From an uncultured Anaerolineaceae bacterium (GTDB lineage Bacteria > Chloroflexota > Anaerolineae > Promineifilales > Promineifilaceae): 32,850 nucleotides of DNA. Numbering within the stretch: position 1 is the first letter of the stretch; every line of letters starts with the position of its first letter. The translations under genes and the position numbers were made by a program. Shown in pieces: positions 2,564 to 32,850 of the stretch. The stretch covers positions 1 through 32,850 of the forward strand of contig CALBTC010000520.1 in the NCBI GenBank assembly GCA_937967805.1. Direction: 5' to 3'. The notes under the pieces were generated by a model. It was not told the DNA's origin. It was given only the letters and a program-made list of their open reading frames with translations, and searched no databases.

Positions 2564-4291
2564 ATGAATAATCGTGAGGTTGCCAAGATTTTTGCCGACG
2601 TGGCCGATATGCTGGCCATCCGCGGCGATATTATCCATCGCGTCCTCTCTTACCGGCGGGCGGCCGAAGCCATTCAGGAGCTGGGCCGCGACATTAACCA
2701 GGTGTATGAAGCGGGCGAGCTGACCGACATTCCCGGCATTGGCAAAACGCTGGCCGAAAAAATTGAAGAGATGCTCACCACGGGCAAGCTGACGTTTTAC
2801 GAGAAGCTAGCTGAGGAAATTCCGCCAACGCTGGTGGAAATGCTCAAGGTGGACGGTTTGGGACCTAAGCGGGTGAAGCAGGTGTATGAGACGCTGGGCA
2901 TCACCACTCTGGCGGAGCTAGATACGGCAGCCCAGGCGGGCAAGCTGCGCGATCTGCCAGGACTGGGTGCCAAATCCGAGGCTAAGCTGGTGAAAGCGAT
3001 TGAGGCGCTGGCCCGGCACGGCGATGATCGCACGCCGATTGGCGAAGCGTGGCCATTGGCCCAGAAAATATTGGCTGAGCTGGAACAGTTGCCGGGCGTG
3101 CAGAAAACGGCCGTTGCCGGTTCCCTCCGCCGCATGAAAGAAAGCATAGGGGATGTAGATTTACTCGTAGCCGCTGATGAAGCTGCGCCCATCATGGACA
3201 CTTTTGTCAATATGCCCCGCGTCGAGTCCGTTTCCGGGCACGGACCGACCAAATCCAGCGTGGTGCTGCACAACGGGATGCAGGTCGATTTGCGCGTGCT
3301 GCCTTCCGAGCGCTGGGGAACGCTGCTTTCCTATTTTACCGGCAGCAAAGACCACAACGTGCGCCTGCGCGAACTGGCCCTGAAGCAAGGGCTCAGCCTG
3401 AACGAACACGCCTTCACCCCTACCGATGGCGGCGAAGAAATCTTGTGCGCCAGCGAAGAAGAACTTTATCAGGTTCTTAATCTACCTTACATTTTGCCCA
3501 CCTTGCGCGAAGATCGCGGTGAAATTGAGGCGGCGCAAAAAGGTCATCTACCGGACGTGATCCAAATCGAGCAGATTGTGTCCGATTTGCACATGCACTC
3601 CACCTGGTCCGACGGCAAAATGACGATTTTGGAGATGGCTCAGGCCGCTCAGGCACGCGACCTACAATACATCTGCATCACCGACCATTCCCAAAGTTTG
3701 GGCATCGTCAACGGGCTCACGCCGGAGCGGCTGTGGCAGCAAGCGGAGGAGATTGCTGCGGCCAACGAAAAAATGGGACCAGATTTCCGTATCCTGCACG
3801 GCACGGAGATGGAAATTAAGGCCGATGGCTCGCTGGATTATGAGGATGATGTGTTGGCCCGGCTGGACTTAGTCATTGCCAGCCTGCACGTGAGCCTGAA
3901 CCAGCCACGCGAGCAGGTAATGATGCGCATTATGAACGCGCTGCAAAACCCGCACGTGGACATGATTGGCCATCCCACGGGCCGCCTGCTGCCGGACCGT
4001 CCGGGGGCGGATTTGGACATGGAGCTGGTGTTGGAGACGGCCGTTTCTACCCAAACCATCATTGAGATCAACGCCAACCCGTACCGGCTAGACCTGCGTG
4101 ACAGCCACGTGCGCCGTGCCGTCGAGCTGGGCGTAACGCTGGCCATCAACACCGACGCCCACCACGCCGACCACTTTGACTTGCTGCACTACGGTGTGGC
4201 CACTGCCCAACGCGGCTGGGCCACGGCCGAGCAGATCGTCAACACCTGGCCGCTGTCCAGGCTGCTGGCGTTTTTGGAGAGTAGAGATTAG
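2564..4291 (+). CDS. polX: DNA polymerase X with C-terminal PHP domain (polymerase/3'-5' exonuclease)
   Basis: A bacterial family X polymerase of 575 residues, the usual length. It fills short gaps in base-excision repair and has a PHP domain for 3'-end trimming. In order: an N-terminal helical domain (about 1-80) with helix-hairpin-helix DIPGIG at 55-60; further HhH elements (DGLGPK near 97-102 and DLPGLG near 130-135); the palm with GS at 186-187, GDVD at 196-199 and a third acidic residue at D242 (MQVDLRV); then the PHP domain from about 338 with HMH at 343-345, ITDH, GTEMEI, SLHV, GHPTG and NTDAHH, the metal ligands of the family. All key residues are present, so both activities are likely retained. 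It starts from a leaderless-looking promoter and stands alone. Its stop lies in an A/T-rich GAGATT-type string. Confidence 0.95.
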   Translation: MNNREVAKIFADVADMLAIRGDIIHRVLSYRRAAEAIQELGRDINQVYEAGELTDIPGIGKTLAEKIEEMLTTGKLTFYEKLAEEIPPTLVEMLKVDGLGPKRVKQVYETLGITTLAELDTAAQAGKLRDLPGLGAKSEAKLVKAIEALARHGDDRTPIGEAWPLAQKILAELEQLPGVQKTAVAGSLRRMKESIGDVDLLVAADEAAPIMDTFVNMPRVESVSGHGPTKSSVVLHNGMQVDLRVLPSERWGTLLSYFTGSKDHNVRLRELALKQGLSLNEHAFTPTDGGEEILCASEEELYQVLNLPYILPTLREDRGEIEAAQKGHLPDVIQIEQIVSDLHMHSTWSDGKMTILEMAQAAQARDLQYICITDHSQSLGIVNGLTPERLWQQAEEIAAANEKMGPDFRILHGTEMEIKADGSLDYEDDVLARLDLVIASLHVSLNQPREQVMMRIMNALQNPHVDMIGHPTGRLLPDRPGADLDMELVLETAVSTQTIIEINANPYRLDLRDSHVRRAVELGVTLAINTDAHHADHFDLLHYGVATAQRGWATAEQIVNTWPLSRLLAFLESRD

Positions 4292-4332
4292 AGATTTAAG
4301 ATTGCTTGTTTTTTAAGAAGATCATTGAGATA

Positions 4333-4414
4333 GGTGTCATTCCGCGAAGGCGGGAATCCATCCACCTGGGCTCCTACCAGCCTGCCCCCGCGAAGGCGTG
4401 GGGCAGGGGTGACA
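4333..4414. repeat. structured intergenic repeat (GTGTCATTCC...GGGGTGACA)
   Basis: The gap between polX and the phosphatase gene holds a repeat with the unit CGCGAAGGCG twice. One copy sits near 4343-4352 and the other is the loop of a perfect 8-bp stem (CCTGCCCC at 4381-4388, GGGGCAGG at 4400-4407). Its ends TGTCATTCC and GGGGTGACA roughly pair. A related shorter copy in opposite orientation lies at 15762-15789. Confidence 0.65.
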
Positions 4415-4433
4415 AATAAGGTTTCAATAAAAA

Positions 4434-4463
4434 TTGTAATAAACGAGTTTTGAAGTGTAGGGT
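4434..4463 (+). promoter_or_regulatory. possible promoter of the SpoIIE phosphatase gene
   Basis: TTGTAA at 4434-4439 and TAGGGT at 4458-4463 are separated by 18 bases, and the ATG at 4470 follows six bases later. No Shine-Dalgarno precedes the ATG, so a leaderless arrangement like that of polX is possible. The -10 match is poor. Confidence 0.25.
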
Positions 4464-4469
4464 ATTTTC

Positions 4470-6290: not shown

Positions 6291-6308
6291 TGAATTGTGA
6301 ATTATGGA
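6289..6308. repeat. short tandem string (GTGAATTGTGAATTATGG)
   Basis: Two tandem GTGAATT units start at the stop codon of the SH3b gene. They resemble other short tandem strings in this window (19457-19482, 28899-29014, 31784-31815). The rest of the 119-base gap holds one ACGGCCGT palindrome (around 6322) and no convincing promoter. Confidence 0.4.
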
Positions 6309-6409
6309 TGGGGGATTTTTAACGGCCGTTCCCCAACCAACTATTTCGGCATAATTAACACGCACCATGTTGCAGTACCTGACGAAATTATACGCAAAGG
6401 CAACGTCTT

Positions 6410-6955: not shown

Positions 6956-6964
6956 TATTACATT

Positions 6965-11089: not shown

Positions 11090-11091
11090 AA

Positions 11092-18055: not shown

Positions 18056-18073
18056 CTCTCGTTCCTATTCAGA

Positions 18074-18150
18074 GATTTTTTATCAACAGATTTCGCAGAT
18101 TTTCTTTCTGCAAAAGCTTAAAAAATCTGTTAAATCTGCGAAATCTTTGA
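18074..18150. repeat. AGATTTCGCAGATTT inverted repeat at the aminotransferase 3' end
   Basis: AGATTTCGCAGATTT (18088-18102) is the exact reverse complement of AAATCTGCGAAATCT (18132-18146), with a 29-base loop. The aminotransferase stop codon and last seven codons lie within the right part. It could act as a terminator-like hairpin before the MocR gene. Confidence 0.75.
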
Positions 18151-19341: not shown

Positions 19342-19370
19342 AATTGCCTCCAATCGGGTGGAATGGCCCT

Positions 19371-21983: not shown

Positions 21984-23896
21984 CCCCCACCAGAACACGC
22001 CACATTGGCTACGCTCTTCTGCTGCTCCTGGCCTTTACGCTGCCGTTTGAACTGGATCGGCCGCTGCTGGCCATCGGTCCGCTGGCGGTGACGAACCTGG
22101 AACTGCTGCTGGGATTGATTTTGCTCGTGGCTGTGGTGACTTGGTTTGGAGATAAGGGCAGCCACAGAGGGCTGCCCCTACCACATCGCGGGGTGGTTTT
22201 GTTGTTGGTGGCGGGGGGATTGTTTGTGGGAACGGCCGTGCTCGCTCCTGAGCAAAACGGCAATGCCCTCAAAGCATCTTTTCGCCTGCTCAGCGGAATG
22301 GCTTTAGCCCTGGCCATCCTTTTATTGGTGCGCACCACCCGCCAGCACATTACTTTGCTGCTGGCAATATTGGCTGGTGGTTTGCTGGTGGCGATCATTG
22401 GCCTGTCTGAAGTGTGGCTGGGGCGTGAGTTTGGCTGGCTGGCGCCGTTCCGCGGCGGCATTACGGTGACGGGTGAATATTTGCGCCTCACCGGACCGCT
22501 CGATTATGCCAACCACGCTGCCATGTTTATCGAAGTCACCGCGCCGCTGCTGCTGGTGGCCGGCTGGCTGTGGTGGAAGAGGGTGGGGAAGACGGCCGTT
22601 CTCTTGCTCGTGGTTTTGGCGCTGCTGCTGTTGCTCCAAGCCAGCTTTGCCACCCTAAGCCGGGCCAGCTTCGTGACAATTGGTGCTGTAGGTATAGGAA
22701 TGATGTTTCTGCTGAGCCAGAGTAATGGATTGAAAAGTGTATGGAGAAAACTAACCGCGGAGAACGCGCAGAGCGCGGAGGAAAAAAGAGGTCAAGGAAA
22801 TCCTCTGCGTCTCTGCGGTTCAATTTTCTTGAGGAATCAGGCGGTGTGGCCGTGGCTGGGGCTGGTTGGGTTGGTAGGCATACTTTTCATTTTTAATACG
22901 CTGGGCAGCGATGTATTCCGCCTGCGTTTTGCCAGCGAAGGGGACAACGGCTGGTACGAGGCCGTCTGGCAGGTGCCGCCGCAGCTGACGCTGGCCGCCA
23001 ACGAAATCCAGCCGGTGCCGATCGTTGTGACCAATGCCGGGGCGTTGACCTGGTCCAGCAACCGGGCCCAGCCGATTAACCTGGGCGGGCGCTGGATTCA
23101 GGCGGAGAGCGGCTTGCAGATGGCCGAACCGCGCTGGCCGTTTGCTCAATCTATTCCGCCCGGTGAAACGGCCGTAATGCAAATCCCCCTGCGCGCGCCG
23201 TCTAATCCAGGGGTGTACACGCTCATTTGGGACGTGGTGCATGAGCAGGTCACCTGGTTTGGCGAGAAGAGCGGCGTTTTTGCCACCAGCACGGTGCGGG
23301 TATTGCCTTCCAACAACCGCTCCCCGTTTCCTGAGCCAGACACGGTAGCCCCTGCCTGGAATTACGCGCTGCCGATTCCGGAGCGGAGTACACTGTGGCG
23401 GCTGGCATTGCAGTTTATTGGGGAACGGCCGTTGCTGGGCATTGGCCTGGATAATTTTCGGTTGGGGTACGGCCGTTTGCTCAACGCCGACAGTTGGAAC
23501 GAAACCATCCACACCAATAACTGGTATCTGGAATTTTTGGTGGGCGGTGGACTGCTGGCGGCGCTGCCGTTTTTTGCTTGGCTCGCCTGGGAAGGGCTGC
23601 TGGCCTGGCGCGTCTTGCGCCGTCCGCCGGTTGATCCCTGGCTGCTGGCCATTTTGGCCGGGCTGCTGGCCTTTCTCATTCACGGCCTGCTCGATTTCTT
23701 TTTGTTGTTCAACAGCACCGGCCTGCTTTTCTGGCTGCTCGTTGGCCTCTGGTGGCAATGGCTAGAAGAACATAAAAATCCGCAGACTGGCGATCATGGA
23801 TCGCGGCAGATTGCGCAGATGGCTTCTCTTCATTCTCTGTGGGTCTCTGTGTCTTCTCTGCGTAACTCTGTGTTCCGCTTTTCAAGGAAGGTTTGA
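21980..23896 (+). CDS. O-antigen ligase/polymerase-like protein with inserted Ig-like domain
   Basis: A 638-residue Wzy/WaaL-type membrane protein, starting at the ATG at 21980 that overlaps the flippase stop. Helices fill about 8-245 and 285-310. Residues about 328-445 are a soluble insert with an NBR1-type Ig-like pattern (LTLAANEIQPVPIVVTN, GALTWSS, PGETAVMQIPLRAPSNPG, VYTLIWDVVHEQVTWFG). The conserved ligase region follows (ERPLLGIGLDNFRLGYGRLL, TIHTNNWYLEFLVGGGL), then more helices. Two in-frame repeats add peptide: about 59-68 (GGGCAGCC hairpin, 22156-22177) and about 256-285 (CGCGGAG repeat, 22752-22831). The last 40 residues or so are also repeat-like. It joins glycan units to an acceptor or polymerises them. 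Confidence 0.88.
   Translation: MTPTRTRHIGYALLLLLAFTLPFELDRPLLAIGPLAVTNLELLLGLILLVAVVTWFGDKGSHRGLPLPHRGVVLLLVAGGLFVGTAVLAPEQNGNALKASFRLLSGMALALAILLLVRTTRQHITLLLAILAGGLLVAIIGLSEVWLGREFGWLAPFRGGITVTGEYLRLTGPLDYANHAAMFIEVTAPLLLVAGWLWWKRVGKTAVLLLVVLALLLLLQASFATLSRASFVTIGAVGIGMMFLLSQSNGLKSVWRKLTAENAQSAEEKRGQGNPLRLCGSIFLRNQAVWPWLGLVGLVGILFIFNTLGSDVFRLRFASEGDNGWYEAVWQVPPQLTLAANEIQPVPIVVTNAGALTWSSNRAQPINLGGRWIQAESGLQMAEPRWPFAQSIPPGETAVMQIPLRAPSNPGVYTLIWDVVHEQVTWFGEKSGVFATSTVRVLPSNNRSPFPEPDTVAPAWNYALPIPERSTLWRLALQFIGERPLLGIGLDNFRLGYGRLLNADSWNETIHTNNWYLEFLVGGGLLAALPFFAWLAWEGLLAWRVLRRPPVDPWLLAILAGLLAFLIHGLLDFFLLFNSTGLLFWLLVGLWWQWLEEHKNPQTGDHGSRQIAQMASLHSLWVSVSSLRNSVFRFSRKV
22156..22182. repeat. in-frame GGGCAGCC hairpin inside the ligase gene
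   Basis: GGGCAGCC (22156-22163) and GGCTGCCC (22170-22177) pair perfectly over a six-base loop, and CTACC follows. It translates as KGSHRGLPLP in a cytoplasmic or inter-helix loop without breaking the frame. A bigger relative with a GGGGCGAGGC start lies at 28926-28987. Confidence 0.6.
22752..22831. repeat. in-frame CGCGGAGAACGCG repeat inside the ligase gene
   Basis: AACCGCGGAGAACGCG (about 22753-22768) and CCTCTGCGTCTCTGCGGTT (22802-22820) form an imperfect inverted repeat. It encodes a charged segment (TAENAQSAEEKRGQGNPLRL) in the hydrophobic protein and keeps the frame. The same family lies at 11092-11157 and 30139-30198. Confidence 0.7.
23776..23890. repeat. repeat-derived 3' end of the ligase gene
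   Basis: CCGCAGACTGG and GCAGATTGCGCAGATGG, then a string of CTCTGTGGGTCTCTGTGTCTTCTCTGCG units, all of the AGATT/CTCTGCG repeat style. It encodes the last 38-40 residues of the ligase, and its 3' end contains the AGGAAGG Shine-Dalgarno of the glycosyltransferase gene. Confidence 0.6.
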
Positions 23897-25020
23897 TGCG
23901 TATTGGCTTTGATGGCACACCGCTGCTTGGGCAGCGCTCCGGCGTAGGGCATTACACGGGCCGCCTGCTGGCTCATTTGGTGCAGCAGCGGCCGGAGTGG
24001 GAATATATGCTGTTCAGCAATCGTCCCTTTGAGCCGCTGGAGACGGAGCTGGCGCATGCCCTGCCCCTGGTCGATAATTTTGGCTTTAGCCGCTTTGTTT
24101 GGATGCAGCTGATGCTGCCCCGCATCATTCGCCAACGGCAGCCGGATTTGTGCCATTTTCCCAACAACACCGCGCCGTTGCACCTCAGCCGTCCTTCGGT
24201 CATTACCATTCATGATGCATCGTTGTTTTTGCACAGCCGGCATCATCCTCGGAGCCGGCTGCTGGCGCTGCGGCTGCTGCTGCCCCATGTGGCCCGGCGG
24301 GCGACGGCCGTTATCACCGTTTCCCACCACGCCCGCCAGGATTTAATGCGCGTCTTGCAGCTTCCCGCCGAGAAAATTCATGTCATCCACGAGGCGGCAC
24401 CAGCCGGCTTCCAGCCGCTGGGTGACCCAATTCAACGCCGCCGGCTCCGCGCCCGGTATAATTTGCCGGAACAGTTTGTGCTGTTTGTAGGCACGATGGA
24501 GCCGCGCAAGAATCTCAAGCGGCTGATTCGGGCGATTGCCCAACTGCGCCGGCGCGGCTGCGACACGCGGCTGGTGCTGGCGGGGCCCGATGGTTGGCTG
24601 ATCAACGGCTCGCTGGACAAGGAGATCGAGACGCTGGACTTACAGGATGTGGTGCAAAATTTGGGCTACGTGCCCCAGGAAGATTTGCCAGGTATTTACT
24701 CACTGGCAACGGTTTTTGCTTTCCCCTCGCTGTACGAGGGGTTTGGCCTGCCGCCGCTTGAGGCGATGGCCTGCGGCACGCCGGTGCTCACCAGCCGCGA
24801 TTCGGCGATGGCCGAGATTTGCGGCGAGGCGGCTTTTCTCGTTGATCCGCTGCAGGAGTTGGCGATTGCCGATGGGCTGGCCTGCCTGCTGGCAGACTCG
24901 GAGCAGCGCGAGCATTTGCGGCAGCTCGGCCTGGCACGGGCGCAGCAATATTCCTGGGAACGAACGGCGGGAGAAACGGCCGTTGTCTATGAAAATGTTC
25001 TCAACGGGAATCACAAATGA
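23896..25020 (+). CDS. family-4 glycosyltransferase (GT-B, mannosyltransferase-like)
   Basis: A 374-residue cytoplasmic GT4 enzyme. N-terminal domain: RIGFDGTPLLGQRSGVGHYTGRLL and HFPNNTAPLH. C-terminal nucleotide-sugar domain: LFVGTMEPRKNLKRLIRAI, then the EX7E motif within PSLYEGFGLPPLEAMACGTPVLTS. This motif order is that of mannosyl- or glucosyltransferases that build surface glycans. The ATG at 23896 overlaps the ligase TGA by one base (TGATG) behind AGGAAGG, and its stop overlaps the next ATG (25017). It makes a glycosidic bond in the glycan unit; donor unknown. Confidence 0.95.
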   Translation: MRIGFDGTPLLGQRSGVGHYTGRLLAHLVQQRPEWEYMLFSNRPFEPLETELAHALPLVDNFGFSRFVWMQLMLPRIIRQRQPDLCHFPNNTAPLHLSRPSVITIHDASLFLHSRHHPRSRLLALRLLLPHVARRATAVITVSHHARQDLMRVLQLPAEKIHVIHEAAPAGFQPLGDPIQRRRLRARYNLPEQFVLFVGTMEPRKNLKRLIRAIAQLRRRGCDTRLVLAGPDGWLINGSLDKEIETLDLQDVVQNLGYVPQEDLPGIYSLATVFAFPSLYEGFGLPPLEAMACGTPVLTSRDSAMAEICGEAAFLVDPLQELAIADGLACLLADSEQREHLRQLGLARAQQYSWERTAGETAVVYENVLNGNHK

Positions 25021-25826
25021 GCCGGATTTTGTTTGGGTTGTGCCTCTTTTTGCTTTTGATTAGCCACGCCTCGGCCAGCGGAGGGCCGTTTGCCTGGCTG
25101 CCGCTGCCTTTGCCAACGGCCGTTGCCGGGCAAGGCTGGCAAATCGGCGTGCTCTCGCTGCTGCCGCTGTTGGTGGTGATAGGAAGAATTTATCCGCAGA
25201 TTACGCAGGCCTGTGGTGAGCGAAGCCGAACCATTTCACAGATTGAAAATAAAAAATCTGTGAAATCTGTGGATTTTTATTTTGGGGAAACGGCCGTAAC
25301 GATTCCCCTGGCGGCATTTTCGCTGCTGGTGCTGCTGCGGCTCACGGCTGAAACTGCTTACCTGGCAGCGATGATCGGGCTGTGTTGGTTTGTTTATCTT
25401 TACCTGGTTAACCATCCAGCCTGGCAGCGAGATTGGCTGTGGCGGGTGTTGGCGATGGTGCTGCTAGTGCAGGGTGCGGTAGCTGTGGCGCAGTTCTTTT
25501 TACAGCGTGAGCTGGGCCTTATCTGGCTGGGCGAGCCAACGTTGGATTTGCTGGTTGAGGGTACCAGCGTGGCTCAGCGAGACGGCCAAAATTGGCTGCG
25601 TGCGTATGGCTTGAACAGCCATCCCAACCAGCTGGGGCTGCTCACGATGGCGCTCTGTCTGCTGCTGTGGCCTAGTCGGCATAGGGTGCAAGGCTGGTGG
25701 CGCTGGCTCTTTTGGCTGGGTCTGGCCGCAGGCATGGCCGGGCTGCTGGTGAGCCTGTCTCGCTCAGCAGTGATGGGGCTGCTGCTCGGTGTTTTGCTGT
25801 TTGGGTTGCATCGTCGCCGGGACTGA
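25017..25826 (+). CDS. second O-antigen ligase/polymerase (Wzy-like), N-terminal part; gene broken by in-frame TGA
   Basis: A 269-residue Wzy-like membrane protein fragment with about seven helices, starting at an ATG that overlaps the glycosyltransferase stop. The motif FFLQRELGLIWLGEP, then GLNSHPNQLGLLTMAL and a helix pair, match O-antigen ligase N-termini. It ends at TGA (25824-25826) after HRRRD. The frame then continues SLLRHEFVLPLALLAAGV in the same phase, so the break is a nonsense codon, not a gene end. About 25 residues (near 60-88) come from the composite repeat at 25193-25275. As a fragment it is unlikely to be active. Confidence 0.75.
   Translation: MSRILFGLCLFLLLISHASASGGPFAWLPLPLPTAVAGQGWQIGVLSLLPLLVVIGRIYPQITQACGERSRTISQIENKKSVKSVDFYFGETAVTIPLAAFSLLVLLRLTAETAYLAAMIGLCWFVYLYLVNHPAWQRDWLWRVLAMVLLVQGAVAVAQFFLQRELGLIWLGEPTLDLLVEGTSVAQRDGQNWLRAYGLNSHPNQLGLLTMALCLLLWPSRHRVQGWWRWLFWLGLAAGMAGLLVSLSRSAVMGLLLGVLLFGLHRRRD
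25193..25275. repeat. composite repeat in frame inside the second ligase gene
   Basis: ATCCGCAGATTACGCAG at the left and AATCTGTGAAATCTGTGGAT at the right flank an inner CTGTGGTGAGCGAAGCCGAACCA (25211-25233) with complementary ends TGGT (25214-25217) and ACCA (25230-25233). This is the same architecture as 12395-12474. It encodes a segment beginning YPQITQACGERSRTISQIE. Confidence 0.65.
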
Positions 25827-25850
25827 TCGCTGCTTCGCCACGAGTTTGTT

Positions 25851-26387
25851 TTGCCGCTGGCTCTTTTGGCTGCCGGTGTGCTGCTCTTTGCCGTTGCCTA
25901 TGGTGATGTTGTGGCCGGGCGGCTGCTGGCGCTGGATTCGCCGCTGGAGAGCCGCTCTCTGTGGGAGCGGCAGCGGGATTTAGGTGTGGCGTGGCAACTT
26001 TTGGCGGAACGGCCGTTCCTCGGCGTTGGTCTTGGCCAATATTTGCCAATGGCGGCTGCGATCAATCCTGAGGCGGCATTGGTGCATAACGTGCCGCTGC
26101 TCATCGGGGCGGAATTAGGGCTGGTGGGGTTGGTGCTGTGGCTGGTTTTCTGGCTGTGGCCCCTGTGGCGATTTGGTCGTCAGGCAAAATATGTTGGAGC
26201 AACGGCCATCTGGCTGGCGATGATTGTGATGGCTCTCATCCATCCCGAACCCACACTCTACCTGCCCAAAGGTGCTGTACTGTGGGGACTGGCCGCCGCC
26301 CAATGGTTTAAGCCGTCACCTTGTCACCAGCGTTCGCAGAACGCCGTCACCCTGTTACCCAGTCATCCTCCCGGGAGCCACCCATGA
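25851..26387 (+). CDS. second O-antigen ligase/polymerase, C-terminal part after the in-frame TGA
   Basis: A 178-residue continuation of the same frame, starting from TTG at 25851 without a ribosome-binding site. It holds the ligase core after the break: SPLESRSLWERQRDLGVAW, ERPFLGVGLGQY, VHNVPLLIGAELGLVGLVLW and about four helices. The last 25 residues (KPSPCHQRSQ...) are encoded by CACCTTGTCACC-type repeat sequence. The stop overlaps the nucleotidyltransferase ATG (ATGA at 26384). Translation on its own is doubtful; it should be read with 25017-25826 as one disrupted gene. Confidence 0.65.
   Translation: MPLALLAAGVLLFAVAYGDVVAGRLLALDSPLESRSLWERQRDLGVAWQLLAERPFLGVGLGQYLPMAAAINPEAALVHNVPLLIGAELGLVGLVLWLVFWLWPLWRFGRQAKYVGATAIWLAMIVMALIHPEPTLYLPKGAVLWGLAAAQWFKPSPCHQRSQNAVTLLPSHPPGSHP
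26313..26370. repeat. CCGTCACC(C/T)TGT tandem string at the ligase 3' end
   Basis: CCGTCACCTTGTCACC and CCGTCACCCTGTTACCCAGTCATCC, separated by GCGTTCGCAGAAC, repeat the motif seen at 15377-15424. They encode the C-terminal tail of the ligase. Confidence 0.55.
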
Positions 26388-27334
26388 AATTAGCCGCGCC
26401 AACCACCCTCACGCAGTTAGAGCAAGCGATCTGGCGCACGGTCGCCTATGTCGATCTGTTCGATTATCCCATGACGGCCGTTGAGATTCATCGCTACCTG
26501 GACGGCGTTCCGGCCGCGGCCAGCGAGGTGGCCAAAAGATTGGTTGACAGTCCGGCATTGGCAGATCATTTAAGCCACCAAGATGGCTTTTTCTGCCTGC
26601 CGCAGCGGGAAGATATTATAGAAATTCGGCAAGAACGTCGGCGGCGTTCCCAGAAGCTTTGGCCGGAAGCAGTACGTTACGGCCGTATCATTGCCCAACT
26701 GCCTTTTGTACGTATGCTGGCCGTCACGGGTTCCCTGGCGATGAACAACGTAGCCGATGATGCCGATATTGATTATTTTGTGGTGACAAAAAACGGCCGT
26801 CTCTGGCTAACGCGCGCCCTGGTGATCGGCATCGTCCGGCTGGCGGCGCGGCGCGGTATCATTTTGTGTCCGAATTATTTTGTGTCCGAATCGGCCCTGA
26901 CGCTGCCGGAGCGTAACATTTACACAGCCCGCGAAATTGTGCAGATGGTCCCTCTGTTTGGCCATGATGTTTACCGGCAGCTGCGGCAAAACAACTGCTG
27001 GGCTAGCCAATTTATGCCCAATGCCGACGGCCCGCCACTGGTGCAAATTCCTGAGCCGGAGCCGGCCACCTGGCCGCAAACGGTGGTCGAACTGCCTTTG
27101 CGTACGCCGCTGGGAGCATGGTTGGAGCAGTGGGAGCAGGCGCGTAAAATAGAAAAGTTGAGCAAGCAGCAAAATGGATCGGGTGAGAGTCTGTTTACGG
27201 CCGTCATCTGCAAAGGCCACTTCCAGGCCCACCAACAACGTACCCTCACCGCCTACCAACACCGCCTTAACACATCCACAGATTTCGCAGATTACACAGA
27301 TAAAAACCAAAATAATCTGCGAAAATCTGCGTAA
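26384..27334 (+). CDS. nucleotidyltransferase-domain protein with N-terminal winged-helix-like region
   Basis: A 316-residue protein from the ATG at 26384, which overlaps the preceding stop and follows GGGAG; a longer frame to 26321 runs through repeat sequence. Residues about 10-75 look like a winged helix (AIWRTVAYVDLFDYPMTAVEIHRYL). Residues about 110-200 are a polymerase-beta-type nucleotidyltransferase core with GS at 116-117 and DADID at 126-130. It is catalytically plausible, since the metal Asp residues are present. Its place among glycan enzymes suggests nucleotide transfer to a sugar or lipid or to RNA, but the substrate is unknown. About 20 C-terminal residues (TSTDFADYTDKNQNN...) come from the repeat at 27274-27343. 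Confidence 0.8.
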   Translation: MKLAAPTTLTQLEQAIWRTVAYVDLFDYPMTAVEIHRYLDGVPAAASEVAKRLVDSPALADHLSHQDGFFCLPQREDIIEIRQERRRRSQKLWPEAVRYGRIIAQLPFVRMLAVTGSLAMNNVADDADIDYFVVTKNGRLWLTRALVIGIVRLAARRGIILCPNYFVSESALTLPERNIYTAREIVQMVPLFGHDVYRQLRQNNCWASQFMPNADGPPLVQIPEPEPATWPQTVVELPLRTPLGAWLEQWEQARKIEKLSKQQNGSGESLFTAVICKGHFQAHQQRTLTAYQHRLNTSTDFADYTDKNQNNLRKSA

Positions 27335-27343
27335 TCTGTGGAT
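27274..27343. repeat. ATCCACAGATT...AATCTGTGGAT inverted repeat spanning a gene end
   Basis: ATCCACAGATTTCGCAGATTAC (27274-27295) pairs with the reverse complement in AATAATCTGCG...GTAATCTGTGGAT (27311-27343). The nucleotidyltransferase stop is inside the right arm, and the radical SAM ATG follows 14 bases after it. Confidence 0.75.
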
Positions 27344-27356
27344 AGATCAAATATTT

Positions 27357-28904
27357 ATGTCTGAGATTCTTTTTGGCCAATCGTATTACCTGAAGTTTGA
27401 TCCCAAGCTGTGGCGAGCCATGCAGCCGTATCCACCGCTGGGCACGCTGTATGCCGCCAGCGTGGCCCGCCAAGAAGGGTACAGCGTCACCTTGTTCGAC
27501 GCCATGCTGGCTGACTCCGAAACCGAGTGGGCAGCAGCCTTGGCCCGGCATCAACCACGCTATGCCATCATCTACGAAGACAGCTTTAATTACCTCTCTA
27601 AAATGTGCCTGCTGGCAATGCGTCAGGCGGCCTTCAACATGATCAAAATGGCGAAGGCTCAGGAGTGCGTTGTCATTTTATGTGGCTCCGATGCGACTGA
27701 CCACACGGAGGCTTATTTGCAAGCGGGAGCCGATTTTGTGCTGCTGGGCGAGGGTGAGGAGACGATGGTTGAGCTGTTGGCGGTGCTGGACGGCCGTTCC
27801 ACCGTTCCCTTCACCCAAATCCTCGGCCTGGCTTACAAGATTGGCGATGACATCTACCAAAACCCGCGCCGCCCCGTCCTCACCGGCATTGATGACCTGC
27901 CGAACCCGGCCTGGGACCTGGTGGACGTGGAAAAATATCGCCGCATCTGGCTAGAGCGGCACGGTTACTACTCCATGAATATGGTCACCACGCGGGGCTG
28001 CCCCTACCATTGCAACTGGTGCGCCAAGCCGATTTGGGGGCAGCGGTACAATGCCCGCACGCCGCGCAGCGTCGCCGCCGAAATGCGTTGGCTGCAAGAC
28101 ACCTACCAGCCCAACCACATCTGGTTCGCCGACGACATCATGGGGCTCAAGCCGGGCTGGTGGTCCGAATTTGCTGATGAGGTGGTAGCACAGGGCGTGG
28201 ATTTGCCCTTCAAATGCCTCAGCCGGGCCGATTTAATCGTGCGCCAGGCGGACAACGTGGCCGCGCTCAAGCGGGCCGGCTGCGACATCATCTGGCTGGG
28301 TGCCGAATCCGGCTCGCAGAAGATTTTGGACGCGATGGAGAAAGGCACGACGGTTGCGCAGATTCGGCAGGCTGCGGCTCAACTGCAGGCGGCAGGGATC
28401 AAAGTTGGCTTCTTCCTCCAGTTTGGCTATCCGGGCGAAACGCGGGCAGACATCGAAAAAACACTCCAACTGGTGCGGGGCTGCCTGCCGGACGATATCG
28501 GCATATCGGTGTCGTACCCGCTGCCGGGCACGCGCTTTCATCAGCGGGTGGTGGCGCAGTTGGGGCCGCAGCAAAATTGGGTCGATTCGGCCGACCTGGC
28601 GATGATGTACCAGGGGCCGTTTCCCACCGAGTTTTATCGCCAACTGCACACTGTTGTACACAAAGAGTTCCGCGCCCGGCGTGACTGGCGCGCGCTGCGG
28701 CAGGTGGCCGCAAAACCAGACCAGTGGCGGCTGGCGCACCTGCGCGAAATGGTGGCGATTGGCTACCGTTGGGCCACGCTGCCCCTGGCCCGCTGGCGGC
28801 TCAACCGGCTGGCCGGGGCCAAACAGGCGCAATTGGTGCTGCCGCACATGCCGCTGGTTGAATCGGCCCGACCCACGCCGCAGCCGGAGGGGAGTGAGAA
28901 GTAA
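27357..28904 (+). CDS. B12-binding-domain radical SAM enzyme
   Basis: A 515-residue radical SAM protein. Residues about 1-150 are a cobalamin-binding-like domain (YPPLGTLYAASVARQEGYSVTLFD, ADFVLLGEGEETMVELL; no DxHxxG is seen, so the cofactor is uncertain). The 4Fe-4S motif CxxxCxxC is TTRGCPYHCNWC (C215, C219, C222), then IWFADDIMGLKPGW, FKCLSRADL, IWLGAESGSQKILDAMEKGTT and FFLQFGYPGETRADIE, the normal core. The start at 27357 was chosen because upstream codons are in the repeat. Its place in the operon suggests modification of a sugar or lipid (methylation, epimerisation or similar); not determinable. Confidence 0.9.
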   Translation: MSEILFGQSYYLKFDPKLWRAMQPYPPLGTLYAASVARQEGYSVTLFDAMLADSETEWAAALARHQPRYAIIYEDSFNYLSKMCLLAMRQAAFNMIKMAKAQECVVILCGSDATDHTEAYLQAGADFVLLGEGEETMVELLAVLDGRSTVPFTQILGLAYKIGDDIYQNPRRPVLTGIDDLPNPAWDLVDVEKYRRIWLERHGYYSMNMVTTRGCPYHCNWCAKPIWGQRYNARTPRSVAAEMRWLQDTYQPNHIWFADDIMGLKPGWWSEFADEVVAQGVDLPFKCLSRADLIVRQADNVAALKRAGCDIIWLGAESGSQKILDAMEKGTTVAQIRQAAAQLQAAGIKVGFFLQFGYPGETRADIEKTLQLVRGCLPDDIGISVSYPLPGTRFHQRVVAQLGPQQNWVDSADLAMMYQGPFPTEFYRQLHTVVHKEFRARRDWRALRQVAAKPDQWRLAHLREMVAIGYRWATLPLARWRLNRLAGAKQAQLVLPHMPLVESARPTPQPEGSEK

Positions 28905-29014
28905 AAAGTGAAAAGTGAAAAGTAGGGGCGAGGCAGGTGGGTAGAACGTTGGCCCAACAAGGCGCCTTACCACCACCTGCCTCGCCCGGTCCAAAGTGAA
29001 AAGTGAAAAGTGGT
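28899..29014. repeat. GGGCGAGGCAGGTGG inverted repeat inside AAAAGTG tandem strings
   Basis: A perfect 15-bp inverted repeat, GGGCGAGGCAGGTGG (28926-28940) and its reverse complement (28973-28987), with a 32-base loop. It is bordered by AAAAGTGAAAAGT strings on the left (28900-28923) and right (28993-29012). This layout suggests a small element inserted into, or flanked by duplicates of, the AAAAGTG string. The gap has no gene; the methyltransferase start lies at its right edge. Confidence 0.7.
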
Positions 29015-29897
29015 AAATAAAAAGAAACAGTCTCCCGTTTCTCCAGTTTCCAATCCTTCGGCAAGCTCAGGACAAGTTCTCCAATTATCGCAGGTGGCGG
29101 CCGCTTTTTCGCGTAAGGCGAGGGTGTATGATGCGTTTGGGCAGGGCCATGCCAATTTACAGCGGATGCGGGCGAAGGTGTACGCGCAGGTGACGCGCTG
29201 GACGCCGGCGGGCAGCCACCTTTTGGAGCTGAATGCGGGAACGGGACTGGACGCGGTGGCGTTGGTCGAGCACGGCTATCGCGTCCATGCTACGGACATC
29301 GCGCCGGGCATGGTTGCGCAAATGGAACTTAAGCGAGCGGAGATGGAACGGAAACGGGAGGAGTTAGAGTTAGACGGCCGTTTCACCCCCCAACTTTGCT
29401 CATTTACCGAACTGGATAAAGTTGAAGCTGGTCCCTTCGATGCCATTTTCTCCAATTTTGGCGGCTTGAACTGCGTGGCGGATTTAACGGCCGTTACCCG
29501 CCATCTGCCCCGACTTTTGAAGCCAGGCGGGGTGCTCACTTGGGTGATCATGCCGCCAATTTGTCCCTGGGAGCTGGCACTGCTGCCCAGGGATTGGCGC
29601 GTGGCCACGCGGCGGCTGCGGCGCGGCGGGGTGGTGGCCAACGTAGAGGGGGTACAGTTCCACACTTTCTATTTTACGCCGGGTCAGGTGCAAAAGGCGT
29701 TGGGGCCAGCTTTTCAGACGCTGGAATTGAGTGGCTTATCCGTTGTCACGCCCACGGCAGACAATGATCGCTTTGCCCGGCGGCATCCCCGGCTGTTTGG
29801 CTGGCTGGTGCGGCTGGATGATTGGTTGTGCAGACGGCCGTTTTTCAACCGCATCGGTGACTTTTTTATTTTGACGGCGCGATATGACCCTGAGTGA
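29010..29897 (+). CDS. class I SAM-dependent methyltransferase
   Basis: A 295-residue Rossmann-fold methyltransferase: motif I HLLELNAGTGLDAVAL (near 70-85), YRVHATDIAPGMVAQM, FDAIFSNFGGLNCV, LLKPGGVLTWVIMPP and C-terminal PLP-free strands. The substrate is unknown; the operon suggests a glycan or its lipid carrier. The frame opens with GTG at 29010 in the AAAAGTG string, and residues 1-28 are repeat-derived, including a TCCTTCGGC...CAGGACA hairpin at 29054-29077. A GTG at 29094 just before AAAFSRKARVYD is a good alternative start. The 3' end overlaps the next gene by 14 bases. Confidence 0.85.
   Translation: MVNKKKQSPVSPVSNPSASSGQVLQLSQVAAAFSRKARVYDAFGQGHANLQRMRAKVYAQVTRWTPAGSHLLELNAGTGLDAVALVEHGYRVHATDIAPGMVAQMELKRAEMERKREELELDGRFTPQLCSFTELDKVEAGPFDAIFSNFGGLNCVADLTAVTRHLPRLLKPGGVLTWVIMPPICPWELALLPRDWRVATRRLRRGGVVANVEGVQFHTFYFTPGQVQKALGPAFQTLELSGLSVVTPTADNDRFARRHPRLFGWLVRLDDWLCRRPFFNRIGDFFILTARYDPE
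29054..29077. repeat. TCCTTCGGC...CAGGACA short hairpin repeat
   Basis: On the minus strand it reads TGTCCTGAGCTTGCCGAAGGA, matching 12411-12432 except inside the loop. Its ends TCCT and AGGA pair. It lies within the doubtful 5' end of the methyltransferase gene. Confidence 0.55.
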
Positions 29898-30876
29898 GTT
29901 CCGCTTTGCCTGCCCGGTCTGCCGCGGGCCGTTGGAGGAGGCTGGCGCAAAGGTGCTGCGCTGCCCGGTGGATGCGCTGACCTTTGGCTGTGAGGCTGGC
30001 ATCTGGCGCTTTTTGCCGCCGGAGCGGGCGGCGGCATTGGCCCGGTTCCGGCAGGAGTACGAGACGGTGCGCCGCCGTGAGGGGCGCGGCAGCGACGATC
30101 CGGCGTTTTATCGGGCTTTGCCTTTTGTGGGAGGGAATGGGACGCGGATGAACGTGGATAACGCGGATTTTTCTTTGCATACTCCGCGTTCTCTACGGCT
30201 AAAATCTGGTTGGGGAGAGCGGGCGCACCGATTTGGGGTGTTGGTGGCGCGGGTGGTACGGCCGTTGGAAGATCAGGTTAAACGGCCGTTAAAAACCCTC
30301 GATCTGGGCGCGGGCAATGGTTGGCTCTCTAACCGGCTGGCGGCGCGGGGGCACGCGGTGGCGGCGGTGGATTTGGGCGTGAACGCCTGGGATGGCCTGG
30401 GAGCGCGGCGCCATTATGCAACGGATTTTGTTTGCCTGCAGGCTGAATTTGATTTTTTGCCATTGGACGATAACCAGGCAGATTTAATAATTTTCAACGC
30501 GTCTTTTCACTACTCGGTGAATTATGAGGTTACGCTGCGAGAGGCGCTGCGCGTGCTGCGAACCGGGGGTAAGGTGGTGGTGGTGGATACGGCCATCTAC
30601 CAACACCAGTCCAGCGGCCAGCAGATGGTGGCCGAGCGGGAAGCAAAATTTTTGCACCAATGCGGTTTTGCTTCTAATGCGCTGCCCAGCGAGAACTACT
30701 TGACACCGGCACGGTTAAATCAGCTTGCTGCTGAATTGGGCGTGCGCTGGTGGCAAATCGAGACGGTGACCCGCTGGCGGCGCTGGATTCGCCGGGCAAA
30801 GGTAGCCCTGCGCCGCCAGCGCGAGCCGGCTCAATTCCCGATTATTCTGTTGGCCACAGAGCGTTTGGAGAATTGA
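29884..30876 (+). CDS. class I methyltransferase with N-terminal cysteine-rich (Trm112-like) region
   Basis: A 330-residue methyltransferase. The N-terminus FACPVCRGPLEE...LRCPVDALTFGC (C10, C13, C27, C36) is a Trm112-like region with a non-standard fourth cysteine. The SAM core starts about 135: LKTLDLGAGNGWLSNRLAARGH, VDLGVNAWDGLG, DLIIFNASFHYSVNYEVTLREALRVLRTGGKVVVVD. Between them, about residues 84-107 (NGTRMNVDNADFSLHTPRSL) are encoded by the repeat at 30139-30198; I infer the family normally lacks this segment. The start overlaps the preceding gene by 14 bases. The stop TGA abuts the next GTG. The substrate is probably a glycan-linked compound. Confidence 0.85.
   Translation: MTLSEFRFACPVCRGPLEEAGAKVLRCPVDALTFGCEAGIWRFLPPERAAALARFRQEYETVRRREGRGSDDPAFYRALPFVGGNGTRMNVDNADFSLHTPRSLRLKSGWGERAHRFGVLVARVVRPLEDQVKRPLKTLDLGAGNGWLSNRLAARGHAVAAVDLGVNAWDGLGARRHYATDFVCLQAEFDFLPLDDNQADLIIFNASFHYSVNYEVTLREALRVLRTGGKVVVVDTAIYQHQSSGQQMVAEREAKFLHQCGFASNALPSENYLTPARLNQLAAELGVRWWQIETVTRWRRWIRRAKVALRRQREPAQFPIILLATERLEN
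30139..30198. repeat. in-frame GACGCGGAT/AACGCGGA repeat inside the methyltransferase gene
   Basis: Three related units (GACGCGGATGAACG, ACGTGGAT, AACGCGGA) are followed by a perfect 8-bp inverted match AACGCGGA (30160-30167) and TCCGCGTT (30183-30190). The translation stays open across the element. Confidence 0.65.
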
Positions 30877-32193
30877 GTGAGGAAAATCAAAGATTTCGCA
30901 GATTTGAATGATGTCTCTTATTTCTCCACGTCCTCCGCGCTCTCCGCGGTTCAATTTTTAAGAATTGGGCGGAATGCGGGCTGGTTGTTTTTGGCCAGGG
31001 TAGGGCAGCAGGGGGTGCTGCTGCTGTTCACGGCGTTGGTGGCCCGGCAACTGGGGGATGTGGGCTTGGGGCAGCTGGCGTGGGTAACGGCCGTTCTCTA
31101 CGTTGGCAATATTTTCAGCACCTGGGGGCTGGATACGGTGCTGCTGCGCCAGATCGGAGCCGAGCGGCAAACGGACAGCGCGCCGCTGGCACCGGCGCTG
31201 CTGTTGGAGCTAATTTTGGCGGCAATTTTTATCTGTGCCCTGCTGCTGCTGCCGTTTTCCCAGCAATCTGCCCAAACGGTGGCCGGCCTGCGCCTCTACG
31301 CCTGGGTGCTGCTGCCGTTGGCTGTGCTCACGCTCACCAGCGCGGCGCTGCGTGGCTTTGAGCAAATGGGATGGCTGGCCGGGTTGACCCTGGGCACGGC
31401 CGTTTTGCAGGTGGTGGGGACGGCCGTTTTGTTTGCCGCCGGTGGTGGGTTTGTGGTCCTGATGGGCTGGCTTTTGGCGGTGCAGTTCATTGCGGCTGGT
31501 GGAAGCTGGTGGCTGTGCCGCCGGGCGCTGCCCAATTTTGGCCTCAACTGGCGTTTGCTGGAGTGGCAAGCGGTGCGGCAGCTGGCGAGGGTTGGTTTCT
31601 GGCTCGCGCTGCTGATGGTAACGGCCGTTCTGCTTCAGCGGCTGGGCATCTTGCTGTTGGGCTGGCTGGGCACCACTGCCCAAACCGGCCAACTGGCCGC
31701 CGCGCTGCGCCTGGTGGAGGCGGCACGCCTGCTGCCGGGGGCGGTGATGGGGGCACTGTTTCCGGTGTTGGCCAGGGAGAAAGTAGCAAGTAGCAAGTGG
31801 CAAGTGGCAAGTGGTGGGCTGGTCACTTACCGGTCGGGATTGGTGGCGTATGGTTTTTTAGCGGCTTTGATGTTGACGTTGCTGGCGAGGCCTTTGGTTT
31901 TTGTTCTGTTTGGCGAGGGGTATGAAACGGCCGTTTCCCTATTGCAAATTCTGGCCTGGGGCGTTGTGCCGTTTACCATTTCGCTGCCGCTTTCCGTGGC
32001 GATGGTGGTGGCCGGGCAGGAAAAACGGGTGCTGCTGGCGACGTTTTTGGTATTGGTGGGAACGGCCGTCCTCACAACAGCCGCTTTTTTCTGGTATGGT
32101 TTACCTGGCGTTGCATTTGGTTTGCTAATCGGTGAGTTTTTATTGGTTGTTGCGCTCTTTTTTACCAGATCAACGATAACTACTTTGGCTTAA
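30877..32193 (+). CDS. second oligosaccharide flippase (Wzx/MATE-like)
   Basis: A 438-residue membrane protein with about 13 helices. The conserved start of the family is NAGWLFLARVGQQGVLLLFTALVARQLGDVGLGQLAW (about 33-69). Residues 1-29 come from AGATTTCGCAGATTT and CGCTCTCCGCGG repeat sequence; the GTG at 30877 abuts the preceding TGA, and TTG at 30904 is another possible start. Near residues 302-315 another in-frame repeat (AGCAAGTGGCAAGT string, 31784-31815) puts KVASSKWQVASGG in a loop after LFPVLAREK. The helix order is otherwise intact. Two flippases in one operon suggest two glycan species or a duplicated step. Confidence 0.85.
   Translation: MRKIKDFADLNDVSYFSTSSALSAVQFLRIGRNAGWLFLARVGQQGVLLLFTALVARQLGDVGLGQLAWVTAVLYVGNIFSTWGLDTVLLRQIGAERQTDSAPLAPALLLELILAAIFICALLLLPFSQQSAQTVAGLRLYAWVLLPLAVLTLTSAALRGFEQMGWLAGLTLGTAVLQVVGTAVLFAAGGGFVVLMGWLLAVQFIAAGGSWWLCRRALPNFGLNWRLLEWQAVRQLARVGFWLALLMVTAVLLQRLGILLLGWLGTTAQTGQLAAALRLVEAARLLPGAVMGALFPVLAREKVASSKWQVASGGLVTYRSGLVAYGFLAALMLTLLARPLVFVLFGEGYETAVSLLQILAWGVVPFTISLPLSVAMVVAGQEKRVLLATFLVLVGTAVLTTAAFFWYGLPGVAFGLLIGEFLLVVALFFTRSTITTLA
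30886..30960. repeat. AGATTTCGCAGATTT plus CTCCGCG repeat forming the 5' end of flippase 2
   Basis: AAAGATTTCGCAGATTTG at the left and TCCTCCGCGCTCTCCGCGGTTCAATTTTTAAG at the right. It sits at the junction of the methyltransferase stop and the flippase start and supplies the first ~28 codons. Confidence 0.6.
31784..31815. repeat. in-frame AGCAAGTGGCAAGT string inside flippase 2
   Basis: Four to five tandem GCAAGT(A/G) units at 31786-31813, similar to the AAAAGTG and GCAAGTGTGC strings elsewhere. The reading frame remains open through it. Confidence 0.6.
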
Positions 32194-32341
32194 ATTTCTC
32201 CAGATCAACTTCTTTGATGATCTTGTAATGTTTGTCGTTTCCGGTTACTAGTGAAAGGCCGTACGAAACGGCCGTTGCGGCAATTAATGCATCGGCAAGT
32301 TGAACTGAGCGGCTAATGATGACATCTGTATCAATCAGCAT
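32180..32341 (-). pseudogene. vapC toxin remnant (PIN domain) with internal deletion
   Basis: A 53-residue frame that begins MLIDTDVII, the exact N-terminal strand of VapC PIN toxins, and jumps directly to RSVQLADALIAATAVSYGLSLVTGNDKHYKII, the C-terminal half with its conserved Asp and Asn. A full PIN domain has about 125-135 residues, so roughly 75-80 central residues are missing and the ribonuclease site cannot form. No vapB antitoxin gene precedes it. It overlaps the flippase 3' end by 14 bases on the opposite strand. Confidence 0.75.
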
Positions 32342-32382
32342 CAAACCGCCCTTTGCAGAGGGATCACAAAAACAGGAAAAAG

Positions 32383-32850
32383 ATGAAAAGGATCGATTTT
32401 TTGGCAAAAAATGAATCGACGCCGATTTTAAAGGCCGTTTCCCGCCTGCAACAACTTCGCCTGCCAGAACCGCCGCAATTGCTCATCTTCTGCCCGCAAA
32501 CGGTCGTGCTGCATCATGCGGTGAAGCGGTGGCGGGGCAAGCGGGTCGATGGCTTTTTTGGCGAGGTGTATTTGTTGGGTAAAACAAAAAATCGTGTGGC
32601 GGTGGCCGGGCAGTTTGGCGTGGGCGCGCCGGTGGTTGGCGTGCTGGTCGAGGAGTTTGCCGCCTGGGGGATGTCTGAATTTGTTTGGCTGGGGATTGCC
32701 GGGGGCGTGCAGCCCTCGCTGACCTGTGGCGATTTGGTTCTGGTGAAAACGGCCGTTCGTGACGAAGGCACCTCGCACCATTATTTGCCGGCGGCAGCCA
32801 TCGTGGCTGCTTCTCCGGCATTGACCGAGCGGCTTGAAAAGGCCGTTCGC
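32383..32850 (+). CDS. nucleoside phosphorylase, 5' part (runs off window)
   Basis: An open frame of 156 codons continuing past the window end. ATG at 32383 follows AGGAAA at a good distance. Signatures of the PNP/UDP family: FFGEVYLLGKT, VAVAGQFGVGAPVVGVLVEEFAAWG, then LGIAGGVQPSLTCGDLVLVKTAVRDEGTSHHYLP, which matches uridine phosphorylase-type enzymes (phosphate and substrate-binding loops). It splits nucleosides with phosphate for salvage. The C-terminal part is not visible, so the substrate type (uridine versus purine) is uncertain. The start lies 42 bases from the divergent vapC remnant. Confidence 0.85.
   Translation, partial: MKRIDFLAKNESTPILKAVSRLQQLRLPEPPQLLIFCPQTVVLHHAVKRWRGKRVDGFFGEVYLLGKTKNRVAVAGQFGVGAPVVGVLVEEFAAWGMSEFVWLGIAGGVQPSLTCGDLVLVKTAVRDEGTSHHYLPAAAIVAASPALTERLEKAVR

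What the first reader, a model, noticed from the sequence alone, without database searches (positions are those of the whole stretch)
3100..32850. ACGGCCGT/AACGGCCGTT palindrome spread throughout the window (HIP1-like signature)
I count about 70-75 copies of ACGGCCGT by eye, one per roughly 430 bases. At about 60% GC, random expectation is about one copy in this length. Copies are mostly inside genes, on both strands and in all frames, giving TAV (acg-gcc-gtt), NGR (aac-ggc-cgt) or ERP (gaa-cgg-ccg). The even spread across unrelated genes resembles cyanobacterial HIP1 (GCGATCGC), which is linked to methylation and repair. Here the core is CGGCCG/GGCC.
Basis: seen in the sequence. Interest (0 to 1): 0.75.

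Follow-up and report, generated by a model that had tools for sequence, protein, structure and literature searches.

The report
Genome-wide repeated palindrome in Chloroflexota
One eight-letter DNA palindrome recurs thousands of times in a group of Chloroflexota bacteria, is kept site by site even where the protein does not need it, and comes in different spellings in different relatives, so a phenomenon best known from cyanobacteria has a counterpart elsewhere in which its cause can be compared.

Summary
The window holds 71 ACGGCCGT against 0.67 expected; synonymous-codon shuffling gives 8.3 against 59 in its ORFs. It is not local: PolX places the window in Chloroflexota near Promineifilales, and 27 of 56 genomes held of the nearest relative's order carry 991-2102 copies per Mb. 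In 400 genomes drawn from the phylum only that relative is dense. Sites are kept: third codon positions inside the octamer are 91-99% identical, those just outside 54-83%. Some relatives carry another octamer instead: TCGGCCGA (2 genomes), GCGGCCGC (1), TGCCGGCA (1), or CGGCCG with any flank. In one gene, 0 of 16 such sites lie where ACGGCCGT sites lie, suggesting turnover rather than rewriting in place. In behaviour this is a HIP (highly iterated palindrome) with a core other than HIP1's. Methylation is not shown and no cognate methyltransferase is identified; a conserved orphan methyltransferase-like gene (25 of 27 dense genomes, 18 of 29 others) is only a candidate. The mechanism is inferred.

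The parts
3107..32756 (.). Field of 71 ACGGCCGT copies. Starts: 3107 4037 4485 6030 6322 6932 7078 7086 7389 8079 8690 9336 9517 9689 9933 10056 10175 10713 11704 11906 12249 12306 12648 12774 13163 13971 14364 14866 15030 16070 16169 16522 16869 17392 17814 17966 18881 19592 19976 20540 21183 21822 21972 22232 22592 23168 23425 23469 24304 24976 25116 25290 26009 26474 26679 26793 27197 27790 29374 29487 29834 30258 30282 31087 31396 31420 31621 31927 32062 32268 32749 (each 8 bp)
   Evidence: exact matches; excess over Markov and synonymous-codon models
1..3106 (.). AT-richer stretch (GC 44% over 1-3100) without a copy; holds one unassigned 794-aa ORF (73-2457)
2564..4291 (+). PolX gene, used to place the host; contains the copies at 3107 and 4037
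   Evidence: NCBIfam NF006375 588 bits; named relatives at 88-90% protein identity in Ardenticatenaceae, Candidatus Leptofilum and Promineifilaceae; 95% (best tblastn segment) in L001

Best explanation
Shown: ACGGCCGT is a highly iterated palindrome of a Chloroflexota order that includes the window's close relatives. It is present 991-2102 times per Mb in 27 of the 56 genomes held for that order, and the DNA word itself, not only the protein it encodes, is kept at individual sites. Some relatives carry another palindrome at similar density, most sharing the core CGGCCG but with another outer base pair. Inferred: a sequence-specific protein reads the word. Most likely an orphan DNA methyltransferase marks the core, and a second reader (a repair or nicking protein, or the enzyme's own flank preference) works best with one outer pair. 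Selection, or repair bias, for marked sites keeps old sites and slowly fixes new ones; when the flank preference changes, the spelling turns over across the genome.
For: Genome-wide density in 27 of 56 genomes. Synonymous shuffle 523 vs 61.5 in G007, 95 vs 8.2 in G001, 255 vs 19.4 in G030 (TCGGCCGA), 119 vs 13.2 in G044 (GCGGCCGC). Retention of 84-100% of sites between loci 84-93% identical, against 28-58% of 8-mers of the same GC (ten pairs of L005-L008, L039); repeated around a second locus. Third-position contrast in all frames; sites outside ORFs 97-100% identical. Core constant while the outer pair switches. In G007 and G001 near-misses are in excess at the outer position (1.9x, 3.1x) and below expectation at the three core positions (0.29-0.83x). 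A conserved methyltransferase-like gene lies, in G009, beside Dus, BipA and LysM genes with no restriction gene among the 7 flanking ORFs scanned.
Against: The candidate gene is also in 18 of 29 genomes that are not ACGGCCGT-dense (three of them carriers of another spelling) and was not found in 2 dense ones, G041 and G042. In several genomes it is seen only in part or in pieces, mostly on short contigs; in G030 the two pieces overlap in different frames. Its target is unknown, and its DPPY motif is commoner in N6-adenine enzymes (recalled) while the core has no adenine. Strong D12 (Dam-like) hits are associated at least as strongly (23 of 27 vs 13 of 29; Fisher 0.002 against 0.010), and kinship was not controlled in either test. 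Genomes with bare CGGCCG (G012, G048-G052) lack the candidate. The outer-position excess of near-misses is absent in G030 and G044 and not clear in the window. Spacing is slightly even in the window and G030 but not in G007 or G001 (cv 1.57). No methylation data were available.
Confidence: 0.4

Rival explanations
1. The octamer is the binding site of an abundant chromosome-organising, segregation or recombination protein; the spellings are co-evolved site preferences, and methylation plays no part.
For: 8-bp unit conserved in genes and outside ORFs; fewer copies closer than 30 bp than random (13 vs 34.9 in G007, 5 vs 13.2 in G030, 3 vs 4.7 in the window), as expected if bound proteins exclude each other; no universal cognate methyltransferase found.
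Against: Density of ~1.5-2 per kb is high for known chromosome-organising sites (recalled); no candidate protein was looked for.
Confidence: 0.2
2. It is a DNA-uptake word that lets competent cells prefer kin DNA; the spellings are uptake dialects, as in Neisseriaceae (recalled).
For: Related genomes differ by a shared core and a changed outer base, and copies are spread over all frames.
Against: Copies are not enriched outside ORFs (2.04 vs 2.46 per kb in the window, 1.68 vs 2.11 in G007), and known uptake words are asymmetric (recalled) whereas this is a perfect palindrome. Competence genes were not examined.
Confidence: 0.12
3. Biased repair of deaminated or mismatched bases (VSP-like) creates the word mechanically, without function.
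For: Such repair can raise one word genome-wide (recalled); core near-misses are scarce, including some C-to-T neighbours on one strand or the other (ACAGCCGT 6 vs 12.5 in G007, TCAGCCGA 1 vs 15.9 in G030).
Against: Scarcity is not specific to C-to-T neighbours: in G007 ATGGCCGT 20 vs 23.3 and ACGACCGT 7 vs 5.1 are near expectation while transversions AAGGCCGT 5 vs 12.7 and AGGGCCGT 4 vs 13.1 are scarce; it does not obviously set the outer A/T, T/A or G/C pair. Vsr was not searched.
Confidence: 0.15
4. Composition or codon-usage artefact.
For: Frame ACG-GCC-GTN (Thr-Ala-Val) is favoured (36 of 59 in the window's ORFs).
Against: Seven-fold or greater excess over synonymous shuffles in five of five samples, all frames, and similar density outside ORFs; none of the 397 sampled genomes of the phylum outside the order's held genomes is dense.
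Confidence: 0.01

Closest known systems
HIP1 (GCGATCGC) of cyanobacteria
   Same: GC-rich octameric palindrome, in the range of 1000-2000 copies per Mb, a CGATCG core with an outer pair (also TCGATCGA) and palindromic extensions, deviations greatest at the first and last positions (Elhai 2015 PMC4390886, sections read; part 1 of 2 of the section on HIP gain); statistical support for selection, as cited in PMC6604393 (passages)
   Different: Core CGGCCG, not CGATCG; Chloroflexota, not cyanobacteria; outer pair A/T, T/A or G/C in different relatives; no cognate methyltransferase identified
Alternate HIPs (GGCGCC, GGGATCCC, rCCGGy, GCsGC) of single cyanobacteria
   Same: A different palindrome replaces the usual one in single genomes, as TGCCGGCA does in G025 and TCGGCCGA in G011 and G030
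   Different: Elhai pairs each with at least one predicted enzyme able to methylate it; here none is assigned, and the spellings mostly share one core within one order
DNA-uptake sequence dialects (Neisseriaceae, recalled)
   Same: Shared core, lineage-specific spelling, genome-wide
   Different: Here palindromic and not enriched outside ORFs

Membership tests
HIP class (Elhai 2015) | by far the most overrepresented palindromic octamer, about 1000-2000 per Mb | tested here: met
   71 vs next 4 in the window; 610 vs 12.9 expected in 300 kb of G007; 991-2102 per Mb in 27 of 56 genomes
HIP class (Elhai 2015) | dispersed through coding and non-coding DNA beyond codon-usage expectation (my criterion) | tested here: met
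HIP class (Elhai 2015) | sites conserved above background between relatives (selection on HIP1 is known to me from a citation) | tested here: met
HIP class (Elhai 2015) | deviations concentrate at first and last positions | tested here: inconclusive
   Met in G007 (1.89x outer vs 0.59-0.69x core) and G001 (3.14x vs 0.29-0.83x); not in G030 (0.83x outer) or G044 (0.56x), and in the small window sample core positions 2 and 4 are as high as the outer one
HIP class (Elhai 2015) | genome carries a methyltransferase that can methylate the sequence | tested here: inconclusive
   m5C family in 14 of 27 carriers; strong D12 hits look GATC-type (motif recalled); candidate of unknown target in 25 of 27
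HIP1 proper | sequence GCGATCGC in a cyanobacterium | tested here: not met
   ACGGCCGT in Chloroflexota
DNA-uptake sequence | preferential uptake of DNA carrying the word | not testable with these tools
   needs an assay
DNA-uptake sequence | asymmetric word (recalled) | tested here: not met
   perfect palindrome

The most novel reading that the evidence does not exclude
HIPs are not a cyanobacterial oddity but a convergent genome-wide signalling layer: a modification enzyme sets a six-base core, a separate reader sets the outer pair, and lineages switch dialect, turning over thousands of sites at new positions, which gives each lineage its own DNA-wide self-mark for repair or exchange.
Probability: 0.3. 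Interest if true: 0.9.

Novelty: new variant of a known kind. Interest (0 to 1): 0.72.

Why it matters
What HIP sequences are for is unresolved, and most cyanobacteria that have one share the same word, so cause and effect are hard to separate. Here one order offers at least five states (ACGGCCGT, TCGGCCGA, GCGGCCGC, bare CGGCCG, TGCCGGCA) plus genomes in which I found none, among relatives close enough to align. It also tests Elhai's model, in which a methylated C preceded by G directs mismatch repair. If the first C of CGGCCG were methylated, only GCGGCCGC would give GmeC; if the first C of GGCC were, the outer pair should not matter. Neither predicts an A/T or T/A outer pair (my inference).

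Tried and rejected
Cognate m5C enzyme (PF00145): 26 of 56 genomes have a match, 14 of 27 carriers. A group shared by G012, G049, G050 and G033 (66-76% identical) is closest in the PDB to 3lx6/3me5 (query: the G050 copy), which I recall as Dcm, so not an obvious CGGCCG enzyme. D12 enzymes (PF02086): 45 of 56 match, 36 strongly; the 29 aligned look like GATC-type Dam of several lineages (motif recalled) and occur also in genomes without the octamer. PF01555: 52 of 56 match, but through many different proteins, with only weak hits in G001, G009 and G041, and the listing was cut. Loss of the candidate gene in genomes without the octamer: G019 and G026 lack it, but G018's fragment ends at a contig end and G033-G040 have it without the octamer, so no causal claim. 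Structure of the candidate (pLDDT 84): Foldseek finds no match at E <= 0.001, only partial matches to SAM-dependent methyltransferases, no help with the target. In-place rewriting between spellings: 0 of 16 in one gene. Even spacing: mixed. Mismatch-repair, Vsr and competence genes were not searched. Only ACGGCCGT, TCGGCCGA, GCGGCCGC, CGGCCG and their reversed controls were counted in all 56 genomes; any other word was looked for only in the samples. Papers: ACGGCCGT is in 196 papers, of which I saw the 20 listed titles, none on this; searches for HIP with Chloroflexi and for methylated motifs with Chloroflexi or CGGCCG listed nothing on such a word in this order (10, 8, 10 and 1 listed). The Chloroflexi genomes in the lake metaepigenome PMC6329791 have GANTC, TTAA and GCWGC methylated (passages); passages of PMC12772301 name no such motif. 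Xu 2018 and Robinson 1995 are not held (known from citations).

Full report
Observation. An exact search finds 71 ACGGCCGT in the 32,850-base window, from 3107 to 32756; 100 dinucleotide-preserving shuffles give a mean of 0.67 and at most 3. The next commonest 8-bp palindrome occurs 4 times, and one-mismatch neighbours are mostly near an order-2 expectation. Of 97 CGGCCG, 71 are inside the octamer. The other 26 are about what an order-2 model gives once octamers are masked (30.5), so here the unit in excess is the octamer. In other samples CGGCCG outside the local octamer is near expectation (G007 311 vs 289.5), below it (G030 84 vs 176, G044 13 vs 37.5) or moderately above it (G001 72 vs 45.4, G011 30 vs 19.3). 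28 of 71 extend to AACGGCCGTT, and G is in excess 3 and 4 bases before the site.

Not codon use. Taking the longest ORFs of 150 aa or more from base 3001 on, 59 copies lie in ORFs; shuffling synonymous codons among genes gives 8.3 on average and at most 13 in 30 runs. The same test gives 523 against 61.5 in 300 kb of G007 and 95 against 8.2 in 100 kb of G001. All three frames are used (36, 13, 10 in the window), and the density outside ORFs is similar (2.04 against 2.46 per kb). ORFs are mechanical calls, not curated genes.

Host and extent. No genome is held for the window. Its PolX (2564-4291) has its best named relatives, 88-90% identical, in Ardenticatenaceae, Candidatus Leptofilum, Promineifilaceae and unplaced Anaerolineae, and is 95% identical (best segment) to that of MAG NAT123, titled Anaerolineaceae (L001); NCBI places Leptofilum in Promineifilales. 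The order of G001, the genome of L001, is not named by the tool. In whole genomes the octamer occurs 11,907 times in 8.1 Mb of G001, and 11,512, 12,866 and 6,888 times in G002-G004. Over the 56 genomes of G001's order, 27 have 991-2102 per Mb (genome sizes rounded to 0.1 Mb). In 400 genomes drawn evenly from the phylum only G001 is dense; by my reading of the table the next outside the order is 95 per Mb (G184), and two more members of the order, G033 and G036, have 110 and 179.

Other spellings. Samples of 20 of the 29 less dense genomes were examined for any palindrome and larger samples of some followed. G011 and G030 carry TCGGCCGA (9,414 in 7.8 Mb, 7,668 in 5.1 Mb). G044 carries GCGGCCGC (12,040 in 8.0 Mb), in 142 of its 157 sampled CGGCCG. 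G025 carries TGCCGGCA (3,665 in 4.0 Mb, seen as the reversed control), with CGGCCG down to 447. G012 has CGGCCG with any flank (231 in 55 kb against 31 expected; 21,019 in 4.1 Mb), and samples of G048, G050 and G052 are similar (36 vs 4.2, 55 vs 7.6, 80 vs 21.1). Several others (for example G018, G026, G033, G056) show no dominant palindrome in their samples, some of them short. The base just outside the octamer also differs by genome: A in G001 (0.58), C in G007 (0.42), A or T in G030 and G011 (0.96, 0.99), C in G044 (0.64). In 200 kb of G030, ACGGCCGT is absent (7.5 expected) and GCGGCCGC is 2 (16.2 expected).

Conservation. Between five related loci 84-93% identical, 84-100% of sites in one are intact in the other, against 28-58% of other 8-mers with the same GC (ten pairs, 22-32 sites each). 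At 70-73% identity 55-75% are kept against 9-13% (fifteen pairs, 7-11 sites each). Around another locus in six genomes the result repeats (82-98% kept at 84.5-94% identity against 33-66%; 56-86% at 73-76% identity against 10-15%). Split by frame, third codon positions inside the site are 91-99% identical, the nearest ones outside 54-83%, and all third positions 70.7% (226,249 compared); sites outside ORFs are 97-100% identical (ordered pairs, not independent). So the DNA word is kept, not merely the protein. Core near-misses are below expectation and outer ones above it in G007 and G001, but the outer excess is not seen in G030 or G044 and the window sample is too small to say.

Turnover of spellings. 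In alanyl-tRNA synthetase, 81 ACGGCCGT sites of 17 genomes fall on 18 alignment columns, one shared by 15. Of the 16 sites of G011, G030, G044 and G025 in their own spelling, none lies on such a column, while G011 and G030 share two columns with each other. This is one gene and 16 sites. Some shared columns encode conserved residues (for example Lys-Arg-Pro-Tyr), so the protein contributes to sharing there. An AlaRS tree of 27 genomes does not join G011 and G030; G011 groups with mixed-flank G012, and G044 lies in a supported clade with ACGGCCGT genomes and two without a dominant word. Deep forks are poorly resolved.

Machinery. Three Pfam families of DNA methyltransferases were searched in the 56 genomes. 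PF00145 is in 14 of 27 dense genomes. Strong PF02086 hits are in 23 of 27 and 13 of 29 others; the 29 proteins aligned look like GATC-type Dam (specificity recalled from motifs). PF01555 matches 52 of 56, but through many different proteins. Its weak hits led to a 650-700 aa protein with motif I near the N-terminus, paired cysteines of zinc-ribbon type and a DPPY motif near the C-terminus, a distant relative of DUF1156 methyltransferases (NF042963, 67-76 bits against a cut-off of 1000). It is in 25 of 27 dense genomes, some only in part, and in 18 of 29 others, G011, G030 and G044 among them (Fisher 0.010 without kinship control; the Dam-like hits give 0.002). In G009 it sits among Dus, BipA, LysM, LacI and GH4 genes with no restriction gene among the 7 ORFs scanned. 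Its target is unknown, and the predicted fold adds only the generic methyltransferase core.

Comparison with what is known. Elhai 2015 (PMC4390886; sections on other oligomers, extensions, other methyltransferases, substitution patterns, nature and loss of HIPs read; first part of the section on gain) describes HIPs in cyanobacteria: GC-rich palindromes at 1000-2000 per Mb, palindromic extensions, alternate HIPs in single genomes, deviations mostly at outer positions, and a putative enzyme able to methylate each abundant word. The present case matches in density, dominance and spelling variants, partly in the near-miss pattern, and leaves the enzyme open; it differs in phylum, core and the range of outer pairs. 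That paper has neither CGGCCG nor Chloroflexi in its main text, and my searches listed no paper on such a word in this order.

Judgement. A HIP-like word in a second phylum, with several spellings in one order, is well supported. That a methyltransferase plus a flank-sensitive reader maintain it is the reading I think likeliest, at 0.4; a structural DNA-binding protein is the main rival.

Noticed in passing
G044, G012 (whole genomes): GCCGGC nearly eliminated: 51 in 8.0 Mb and 132 in 4.1 Mb, while CGGCCG is 13,814 and 21,019; suggests past restriction, and contrasts with G025 where GCCGGC is the palindrome's core.
   Followed up: no
flanks of the sites in the window, G007, G001, G044: G is enriched 3-4 bases before the octamer (0.34-0.55 in the bulk samples), giving GGnnACGGCCGTnnCC; could be codon phase or part of a longer site.
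   Followed up: no
L191-L205 (G007, 300 kb): GGGCCC (5 vs 199) and CCCGGG (5 vs 148) strongly avoided, typical of restriction pressure.
   Followed up: no
L021 1-21725: A more distant Anaerolineales MAG (PolX 61%) has 64 CGGCCG but only 10 ACGGCCGT in 21.7 kb at GC 49%, so a CGGCCG excess may reach beyond the close relatives.
   Followed up: no
window 1-3100: AT-richer stretch with a 794-aa ORF (73-2457) matching no Pfam or NCBIfam family at E 0.001 and no octamer; possibly recently acquired.
   Followed up: partly
window 16592-19353: Two adjacent MocR/PdxR-like aminotransferase genes on the minus strand, the second (18130-19353) without a GntR domain hit.
   Followed up: no
window 20715-32193: Polysaccharide cluster: two Polysacc_synt (flippase-like) proteins, O-antigen ligase-like proteins, a group 1 glycosyltransferase, a B12-binding radical SAM protein and two methyltransferase-domain proteins.
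   Followed up: no
G007 and G030 samples: Copies closer than 30 bp are about 2.5 times rarer than random (13 vs 34.9; 5 vs 13.2).
   Followed up: no
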